Below, one piece after another: positions 18,203 through 51,961 of a stretch of 64,000 nucleotides of DNA; within the stretch, counting starts at the first letter, position 1; each line of letters begins with the position of its first letter. Below the pieces are notes generated by a model. That model had not been told where the DNA came from and ran no database searches. It saw only the letters and a program-made list of their open reading frames with translations. Source of the DNA: Candidatus Aminicenantota bacterium (GTDB taxonomy: Bacteria > Acidobacteriota > Aminicenantia > Aminicenantales > UBA4085); contig JADGNV010000122.1 in assembly GCA_017883285.1 (NCBI GenBank), forward strand, positions 26,152-90,151, in the 5' to 3' direction. A program made the position numbers and the translations under genes.

Positions 18203-18221
18203 CCGGACTCCGCGGGACGGG

Positions 18222-18264
18222 CGCAGGGCGGGGTTTCGTGCCCCGCCCGAGAAGGGGAGGCAGG
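18222..18264. repeat. 43-bp direct repeat, copy 1 (hairpin GGGCGGGG/CCCCGCCC)
   Basis: cgcagggcggggtttcgtgccccgcccgagaaggggaggcagg; 1 mismatch to 18987-19029. Confidence 0.9.
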
Positions 18265-18272
18265 ACAGCCGA

Positions 18273-18962: not shown

Positions 18963-18985
18963 CCAAGGGGGAGTCGCCCCCTTGG
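18963..18985. repeat. Perfect 9-bp hairpin CCAAGGGGG-agtcg-CCCCCTTGG
   Basis: Read directly. Confidence 0.95.
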
Positions 18986-18986
18986 T

Positions 18987-19029
18987 CGCAGGGCGGGGTT
19001 TCATGCCCCGCCCGAGAAGGGGAGGCAGG
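18987..19029. repeat. 43-bp direct repeat, copy 2
   Basis: See 18222-18264. Confidence 0.9.
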
Positions 19030-19107
19030 GCGGCCGGCTCTTCCCGGCGCCCGTTGGAAGGGGTCTTCCCCTCCAAATTGACCGCCCCTGACGCGCGCCG
19101 ATTGTGA

Positions 19108-22806: not shown

Positions 22807-22893
22807 GGCGCGGCTTTTGCCCTCATCGCTCTCGCGGCTCACCCATCTTCGAAGGGTCCCCGCCGCTTCGAGCGACAAGGGCACCGCCGCGCC
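22807..22893. repeat. Dispersed ~87-nt imperfect hairpin, copy A
   Basis: Paired segments GGCGCGGC/GCCGCGCC, GCCCT/AGGGC, TCGCTC/GAGCGA, GCGGC/GCCGC, ACCC/GGGT. Confidence 0.92.
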
Positions 22894-29928: not shown

Positions 29929-29988
29929 ACGCGAAAGGGAGCTGATTAGCGCGGCCGCTCTTTTCCCCAGGCTCGGAGGGGCGGTTCG

Positions 29989-30074
29989 GCGCGGCTCCCG
30001 CCCCAGTCGCTCTCGCGGCTCACCCCCAAACCGTGGGCCCCCGCCGCTTCGAGCGACCGGGGCTCGCGCCGCGC
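29989..30074. repeat. Dispersed ~87-nt imperfect hairpin, copy B
   Basis: GCGCGGC...GCCCC.GTCGCTC...GCGGC / GCCGC..GAGCGAC.GGGGC..GCCGCGC. Confidence 0.92.
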
Positions 30075-30197: not shown

Positions 30198-30360
30198 GGG
30201 GGCGCGAGGGCGGTGGGGCGGAGAAAGGCATACCGAGGCGCAGCGGGCATGGACCGCGATCCGTCGAAGGCGGATCGCGAGAGCAAGCCGAGGGAACGAG
30301 CCGATTTTCCTCGCCGGGGAAAATCGGCGTACTTTCGGAGCCCCCCGCCCGGGAGCCCCC
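30198..30360 (+). ncRNA. Candidate structured RNA core B
   Basis: GGGGGC(gcga)GGGCGG(t)GGGGC(gga)GAAAG ... CTTTC(gga)GCCCC CCGCCC(ggga)GCCCCC; internal hairpins 30255-30279 and 30300-30328. Confidence 0.6.
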
Positions 30361-51643: not shown

Positions 51644-51730
51644 GGCGCGGCTCCCGCCCCAATCGCTCTCGCGGCTCACCCATCTTCGAAGGGTCCCCGC
51701 CGCTTCGAGCGACCGGGGCTCGCGCCGCGC
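51644..51730. repeat. Dispersed ~87-nt imperfect hairpin, copy C
   Basis: Same paired blocks as copies A, B and D. Confidence 0.92.
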
Positions 51731-51776
51731 TGCCCTACTCAAACTAGAACACTATGCATCGGTTAATCCTTTAGCC

Positions 51777-51925
51777 GGGCGAGGGGCATGCCGCTCAAAA
51801 ACCGGTCTTCGGACGGAGCGGGCAGGGTTCGCCGCCCGACAGGGCGGCGAGAGCGACGGACGAAGAAGAGCGGAATTTCCTCGCCGGGGAAATTCCGCGC
51901 GTTTTTGAGCGGCTGCCCCGAGCCC
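51777..51925 (+). ncRNA. Candidate structured RNA core C
   Basis: GGGC-GA-GGGGCA-(t)-GCCGCTCAAAAAC ... GTTTTTGAGCGGC-TGCCCC-GA-GCCC; internal hairpins 51829-51850 and 51870-51898. Confidence 0.65.
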
Positions 51926-51932
51926 CCCCCGT

Positions 51933-51961
51933 TTGACTTTGCGGGCGCGATAATCTATCAT
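51933..51961 (+). promoter_or_regulatory. Promoter TTGACT-N17-TATCAT for rpsT
   Basis: Direct match downstream of core C. Confidence 0.6.

What the first reader, a model, noticed from the sequence alone, without database searches (positions are those of the whole stretch)
51777..51925. Candidate undescribed structured RNA (core C) with a long GA-interrupted outer stem and a capped internal hairpin
Seen directly: 51777-51802 (GGGC-GA-GGGGCA-t-GCCGCTCAAAAAC) pairs over 23 bp with 51901-51925 (GTTTTTGAGCGGC-TGCCCC-GA-GCCC), leaving a symmetric GA/GA internal loop and one bulged T. Inside are T-CGCCGCCC-GACA-GGGCGGCG-A and an 11-bp hairpin GCGGAATTTCC-TCGCCGG-GGAAATTCCGC. No convincing ORF explains it. 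It lies between divergent dtd and rpsT and upstream of the probable rpsT promoter (51933-51961), so it is probably not the rpsT leader.
Basis: partly seen in the sequence, partly recalled or inferred. Interest (0 to 1): 0.85.

Follow-up and report, generated by a model that had tools for sequence, protein, structure and literature searches.

The report
Mobile repeat with conserved folded core
The folded sequence between dtd and rpsT is one copy of a previously uncatalogued, high-copy mobile DNA repeat that carries no gene but keeps the same elaborate fold in at least six phyla of mostly uncultured bacteria, which makes the purpose of that fold a testable question.

Summary
The fold is real (z = -6.4) and matches no Rfam family. 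It is not a single-locus RNA. It is one of at least 20 copies in this genome of a dispersed element. Recognisable copies occur throughout Candidatus Aminicenantes and in Omnitrophota, WOR-3/Stahlbacteria, Patescibacteria/Wolfebacteria, one Actinomycetota bin and one Acidobacteriota bin. The core has a three-way junction with near-invariant GCGGGCANGG, GAGAGCGA and CTCGCYGGGG motifs. Its helices covary strongly: 236 two-sided changes against 75 in shuffles.

It is mobile DNA. The dtd–rpsT gap is 369 bp here but 52–83 bp, without the element, in 12 relatives. Elsewhere the same core lies in 200–243-bp elements with IS1-like inverted repeats and exact 9-bp target duplications, and in WOR-3 in a different chassis with 16–20-bp duplications. 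No gene is inside.

The window's copy shows no terminal repeat or duplication of its own. The mobilising enzyme was not found. Pairs are almost all Watson–Crick, with only a mild strand-specific G·U excess, so "structured RNA" is possible but not shown.

Verdict: a new variant of bacterial MITE, unusual in keeping one covarying core across phyla and across different transposon ends.

The parts
51777..51802 (+). P1, 5' arm of the closing stem (GGGC-GA-GGGGCA-t-GCCGCTCAAAAAC)
   Evidence: fold; arms of relatives differ in sequence but stay complementary
51901..51925 (+). P1, 3' arm (GTTTTTGAGCGGC-TGCCCC-GA-GCCC)
   Evidence: fold
51806..51819 (+). P2, 5' side, with a GA facing the GA at 51855-51856
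   Evidence: fold; pair counts
51820..51828 (+). conserved one-sided loop GGGCAGGGT, part of the near-invariant GCGGGCANGG motif
   Evidence: alignments
51829..51850 (+). P3 hairpin, variable sequence, always paired
   Evidence: 8-9 of 9 pairs with changes on both sides
51851..51866 (+). GAGCGA motif (of the conserved GAGAGCGA) and P2, 3' side
   Evidence: alignments and fold
51870..51898 (+). P4 hairpin with near-invariant tip CTCGCYGGGG
51801..51901 (+). core matched by covariance model R1 (98.8 bits; this copy is in the model's seed)
51644..51719 (+). repeat D1, a second palindromic repeat family beside the element, part of the same insertion relative to sister genomes
51720..51776 (.). spacer between D1 and the element; spacers of about 45-60 nt with different sequence in other copies (L002, L003)
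30198..30360 (+). second copy in the window (subfamily 'core B'), core match 30227-30331
   Evidence: 68.9 bits
51933..51961 (+). probable rpsT promoter, host sequence conserved in relatives, just outside the insertion

Best explanation
The feature is one copy of a non-autonomous mobile repeat (MITE-like). A conserved core of about 100 nt folds as a three-way junction when the plus strand is single. Complementary arms close the core; they differ in sequence from lineage to lineage and in some lineages continue into transposon terminal inverted repeats. Transposases acting in trans on those ends insert the element into intergenic DNA in either orientation. In this genome a block of about 290 bp (repeat D1, spacer, this element) entered the dtd-rpsT gap just upstream of the rpsT -35 box. 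Shown: the fold and its covariation, dispersal, absence at the orthologous site in relatives, and exact target duplications around relatives of the core. Inferred: that this copy arrived by the same process, that a DDE transposase (IS1-like for the 9-bp class) moves it, and that selection on copies that propagate, rather than on each resident copy, keeps the fold.
For: 24 matches in own genome, 18 of 60 relatives, 117 stretches in GTDB genomes from several phyla. Orthologous dtd-rpsT gap 52-83 bp without the element in 12 relatives against 369 bp here. 18 of 73 copies with GNAAGCATC-type ends have an exact 9-bp target duplication, 1 a repeat of another length between 5 and 13 bp. The right end agrees with an IS1A end at 16 of 24 positions, permutation p 7e-5. 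WOR-3 copies have other ends and 16- and 20-bp direct repeats. Covariation: 236 two-sided changes against 75 in shuffles. Intergenic, no fixed orientation to genes. Recent copies drift: most one-sided changes in stems break pairs, while lineages keep pairing.
Against: The window copy and its close family have no recognisable terminal repeats or target duplication. No autonomous partner with the same ends was found; IS1-like transposases in G256 carry different ends. PF03400 is not found over its cut-off by six-frame scan in 143 genomes of the class.
Confidence: 0.75

Rival explanations
1. The mobile element encodes a functional RNA: the core is transcribed and acts in trans, for example by recruiting or guiding a transposase, as a processing or self-cleaving RNA, or as a decoy. 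The fold is therefore selected as RNA.
For: Near-invariant loop motifs and GA/GA mismatches inside covarying helices across phyla. Mild plus-strand G-U over A-C excess within recent families, 75:45, p 0.008, without a matching mutational bias. The same core sits in different transposon ends.
Against: G-U pairs are rare: 77 against 2419 Watson-Crick at fixed P3/P4 positions, which I judge low for a structural RNA. No promoter-like site precedes the core in the window. No expression data. No Rfam match.
Confidence: 0.2
2. The fold is a by-product of DNA palindrome dynamics: template switching at quasi-palindromes keeps inverted arms complementary, and copies spread passively with the transposon ends. 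The core does nothing.
For: Almost all pairs are Watson-Crick. Two-sided Watson-Crick changes occur even between recent copies, 32 to 45 cells. P1 arms share little sequence between lineages yet match over long stretches.
Against: Does not explain near-invariant unpaired motifs and a constant three-way architecture across phyla.
Confidence: 0.15
3. A host regulatory RNA or cis-element acting on rpsT or dtd.
For: It sits next to the rpsT -35 box; two relatives have other palindromic repeats in the same gap.
Against: Absent at this site in 12 relatives that keep dtd, rpsT and the promoter; dispersed copies show no fixed orientation to genes.
Confidence: 0.05
4. A REP/BIME-type repeat moved by a Y1 (RAYT) transposase.
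For: High copy number, palindromic, intergenic, mosaic with other repeats. Y1_Tnp genes are present in 14 of 16 host genomes examined.
Against: None of 30 Y1_Tnp loci carries the element within the fetched flank of about 1.5 kb. Exact 9-bp duplications are not expected of Y1 single-strand transposition (general knowledge).
Confidence: 0.05

Closest known systems
Bacterial MITEs (e.g. QMITE2 of Coxiella, Correia/NEMIS; reviews PMC10969869, PMC2229807)
   Same: Small, gene-less, intergenic, many copies, inverted ends, target duplications, stable stem-loop potential of the whole element.
   Different: A conserved covarying three-way-junction core shared across several phyla and carried by at least two different kinds of transposon ends.
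IS1 family insertion sequences
   Same: 9-bp target duplication (IS1 value from general knowledge) and ends agreeing at 16 of 24 positions with an IS1A end, in the GNAAGCATC class only.
   Different: No transposase inside; resident IS1-like elements in G256 have different ends; the window copy lacks these ends.
ERIC / RU-1 and YPAL / RU-2 repeats (PMC2229807)
   Same: Long stem formed by 5'-3' end pairing; YPAL also makes direct repeats of variable length (3 to 26 bp).
   Different: Described there from enterobacteria; no branched, phylum-spanning covarying core is reported in the passages read.
REP / BIME (RAYT-linked) repeats
   Same: Palindromic, high copy, mosaic with other repeat families.
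   Different: Much larger, branched; no link to Y1_Tnp genes found.
Transposon-linked RNAs (HEARO/omega RNA, IS110 bridge RNA)
   Same: Structured RNA carried on mobile elements is the analogy.
   Different: No match to any Rfam family at the element even at relaxed thresholds; nuclease or IS110 genes beside copies were not searched systematically.

Membership tests
MITE | short (roughly 100-400 bp), no coding capacity | tested here: met
   TIR-bearing relatives are 200-243 bp; window copy 149 bp, no convincing ORF
MITE | terminal inverted repeats | tested here: inconclusive
   met for the GNAAGCATC class and WOR-3 copies; for the window copy only the P1 arms are seen
MITE | target site duplication | tested here: inconclusive
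   exact 9 bp in 18 of 73 candidates, 16 and 20 bp in WOR-3; none for the window copy
MITE | dispersed insertions, absent at orthologous sites | tested here: met
   12 relatives lack it at dtd-rpsT; many dispersed copies
MITE | moved in trans by a transposase of an autonomous relative with the same ends | tested here: inconclusive
   no autonomous element with these ends found; assemblies are fragmented
IS1 family (as full member) | IS1 transposase inside the element | tested here: not met
   elements are 200-243 bp and carry no gene
IS1-derived MITE | IS1-like ends and 9-bp duplication | tested here: met
   for the GNAAGCATC class only; not for the window copy
REP/BIME with RAYT | element flanking a Y1_Tnp gene | tested here: not met
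   0 of 30 Y1_Tnp loci
Known Rfam RNA family | score above a family's gathering cut-off | tested here: not met
Functional structured RNA | covarying helices | tested here: met
   covariation alone does not tell RNA from folded DNA
Functional structured RNA | discrete transcript | not testable with these tools
   no expression data

The most novel reading that the evidence does not exclude
The core is an independent folded unit, RNA or single-stranded DNA, that has been captured by unrelated transposon ends in several phyla because the fold itself promotes propagation, for example by recruiting a transposase or host factor through the GCGGGCANGG / GAGAGCGA / CTCGCYGGGG surface. That would be a class of mobile elements defined by a shared nucleic-acid structure rather than by a transposase.
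Probability: 0.25. Interest if true: 0.85.

Novelty: new variant of a known kind. Interest (0 to 1): 0.6.

Why it matters
Gene-less bacterial repeats are usually treated as decayed transposon remnants. Here one elaborate, covarying fold persists across phyla and across different transposon ends, which suggests that the fold matters for spread. The covariance model, the list of host genomes and the exact target duplications make that testable. It also warns against annotating each such intergenic structure in these genomes as a separate RNA gene.

Tried and rejected
1) Rfam at gathering and relaxed thresholds on the window and on 14 further loci: nothing credible at the element. 2) Viral contigs: the core pattern is absent. 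3) Y1/RAYT transposase as partner: genes present, but none near the element. 4) IS1 transposase by Pfam in six-frame scans: none over the cut-off in 143 genomes of the class or in 30 genomes reached directly, most of which carry the element. Searching with diverged IS1-like proteins then found intact copies in G256 and relics in G255 and G026, but with ends GGTGCTTCCT, not the element's ends. 5) An autonomous version with a gene inside P3 or P4: none among the loci held; lone left halves were altered or truncated copies or chance matches. 6) Target duplication for the window copy: none found. 7) A lower substitution rate at motif positions was discarded as evidence because copies were found by those motifs. 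8) A possible pairing of the P4 tip CUCGC with GCGGG or GCGAG was considered; both sides are too conserved to test.

Full report
OBSERVATION. The 169-nt stretch folds at -101.5 kcal/mol against -74.1 (sd 4.3) for dinucleotide shuffles, z -6.4. Flanking genes are dtd (minus) and rpsT (plus). The only promoter-like site in the region is at 51933-51961, downstream of the element. No Rfam family matches.

IT IS A REPEAT. BLASTN finds 24 places in the same genome and matches in 18 of 60 relatives. An alignment of 13 diverged copies shows the anatomy. A closing stem P1 has interchangeable sequence and usually a GA/GA mismatch (GGC-GA-GG...CC-GA-GCC). P2 carries a second GA/GA and the one-sided loop GCGGGCANGG. 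P3 is a hairpin of variable sequence, followed by GAGAGCGA. P4 is a hairpin with tip CTCGCYGGGG. A covariance model scores the window copy at 98.8 bits (it is in the seed) and a second copy in the window at 30227-30331 at 68.9 bits. A phylum scan finds it in 6 of 199 genomes, several with the maximum of 20 scored copies. An exact-pattern scan of 85,488 species genomes returned 117 stretches: mostly Candidatus Aminicenantes, also Omnitrophota, WOR-3/Stahlbacteria, a Patescibacteria genome, Wolfebacteria, one Actinomycetota bin, one Acidobacteriota bin and unclassified bins. Binning errors are possible for single bins, but the Actinomycetota bin holds about eight element copies on separate contigs. 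Fourteen further member loci gave no Rfam match at the element.

COVARIATION. On 52 loci, 89.8% of pair cells are standard pairs and 236 cells have changes on both sides, against 75.3 in shuffles; the covariation score is 0.334 against at most 0.058 when partners are slid. That alignment was fitted to the model, so it leans towards the structure; the MAFFT alignment of the 12 seed copies gives the same picture. P1 arms share little sequence between lineages yet are complementary over 16-37 positions in nearly all of the 19 copies compared.

IT IS MOBILE. In 12 relatives dtd begins 52-83 bp before rpsT and the gap holds no element; here the distance is 369 bp. Two relatives (G004, G020) carry a different palindromic repeat upstream of rpsT. 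In several Aminicenantes genomes and the Actinomycetota bin the core sits in 200-243-bp elements with ends of the type GNAAGCATCYYYATTTCCGTGAT. With ends fixed by the repeat, 18 of 73 candidates have an exact 9-bp duplication; one candidate has a repeat of another length between 5 and 13 bp. The right end agrees with one end of E. coli IS1A at 16 of 24 positions (permutation p 7e-5). WOR-3 copies instead end in GTCATTACC-type repeats with 20-bp and 16-bp direct repeats, a length not seen in controls. So the same core travels in at least two kinds of ends. Copies are intergenic with no fixed orientation to neighbouring genes.

LIMITS. The window copy and other copies of its family lack those ends and show no duplication. 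Its membership rests on the shared core and on the empty sites. The enzyme is unidentified: IS1-like transposases occur in G256 (intact) and as relics in G255 and G026, but with other ends, and Y1 transposase genes are never near the element in the loci fetched.

RNA OR DNA. At fixed positions of P3 and P4 there are 2419 Watson-Crick, 77 G-U and 33 A-C pairs. Within recently expanded families one-sided changes are mostly pair-breaking; G-U exceeds A-C 75:45 (p 0.008) although the overall substitution spectrum shows no such bias, 186:204. So resident copies drift, with a weak plus-strand preference, while the lineages keep the fold. I read this as selection on the copies that propagate, through a single-stranded form (RNA or ssDNA), with palindrome repair by template switching as a partial alternative. 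Conservation of loop motifs within families cannot be used, because copies were found by those motifs.

COMPARISON. It works like, and in the TIR class meets the defining features of, bacterial MITEs (PMC10969869, PMC2229807). It differs by a conserved, covarying core shared across phyla and across transposon ends. I found no description of it in the literature searched; that library is partial.

Noticed in passing
window 22807-22882, 29988-30063, 51644-51719: D1, a second GC-rich palindromic repeat family, often 45-60 nt upstream of the element in the same orientation (L001, L002, L003).
   Followed up: partly
window 18219-18271 and 18984-19036: D7, a third repeat family (GGTCGCAGG..CCCGAGAAGGGGAGGCAGG).
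   Followed up: no
L213, L227-L231, L292 (G016): In several copies the tip of P4 is replaced at the same point by a structured module of about 150-180 nt (GACTGATTTG...) that resembles D7.
   Followed up: partly
L257 (G004) and L263 (G020), upstream of rpsT: A different palindromic repeat (GGAACCGACRGGACTGGTTCCCC) sits upstream of rpsT in two relatives; in G020 and in L288 it lies between AGCATCTC-type ends like those around this core.
   Followed up: partly
L080, L129, L190 (WOR-3): The same core in elements with GTCATTACC-type ends and unusually long direct repeats: 20 and 16 bp exact, and an imperfect one of about 17 bp.
   Followed up: partly
L340/L344 (G256), relics in L345 (G255) and L346 (G026): Diverged IS1-like insertion sequence of about 1.2 kb with ends GGTGCTTCCT, in genomes rich in the TIR-bearing elements.
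   Followed up: partly
L272, L284, L300 (G016): Short derivatives that keep both transposon ends but have lost the core.
   Followed up: no
L031 (G031): P3 is enlarged by an inserted palindrome GGGGTCAGACTTT...AAAGTCTGACCCC, seemingly another mobile repeat.
   Followed up: no
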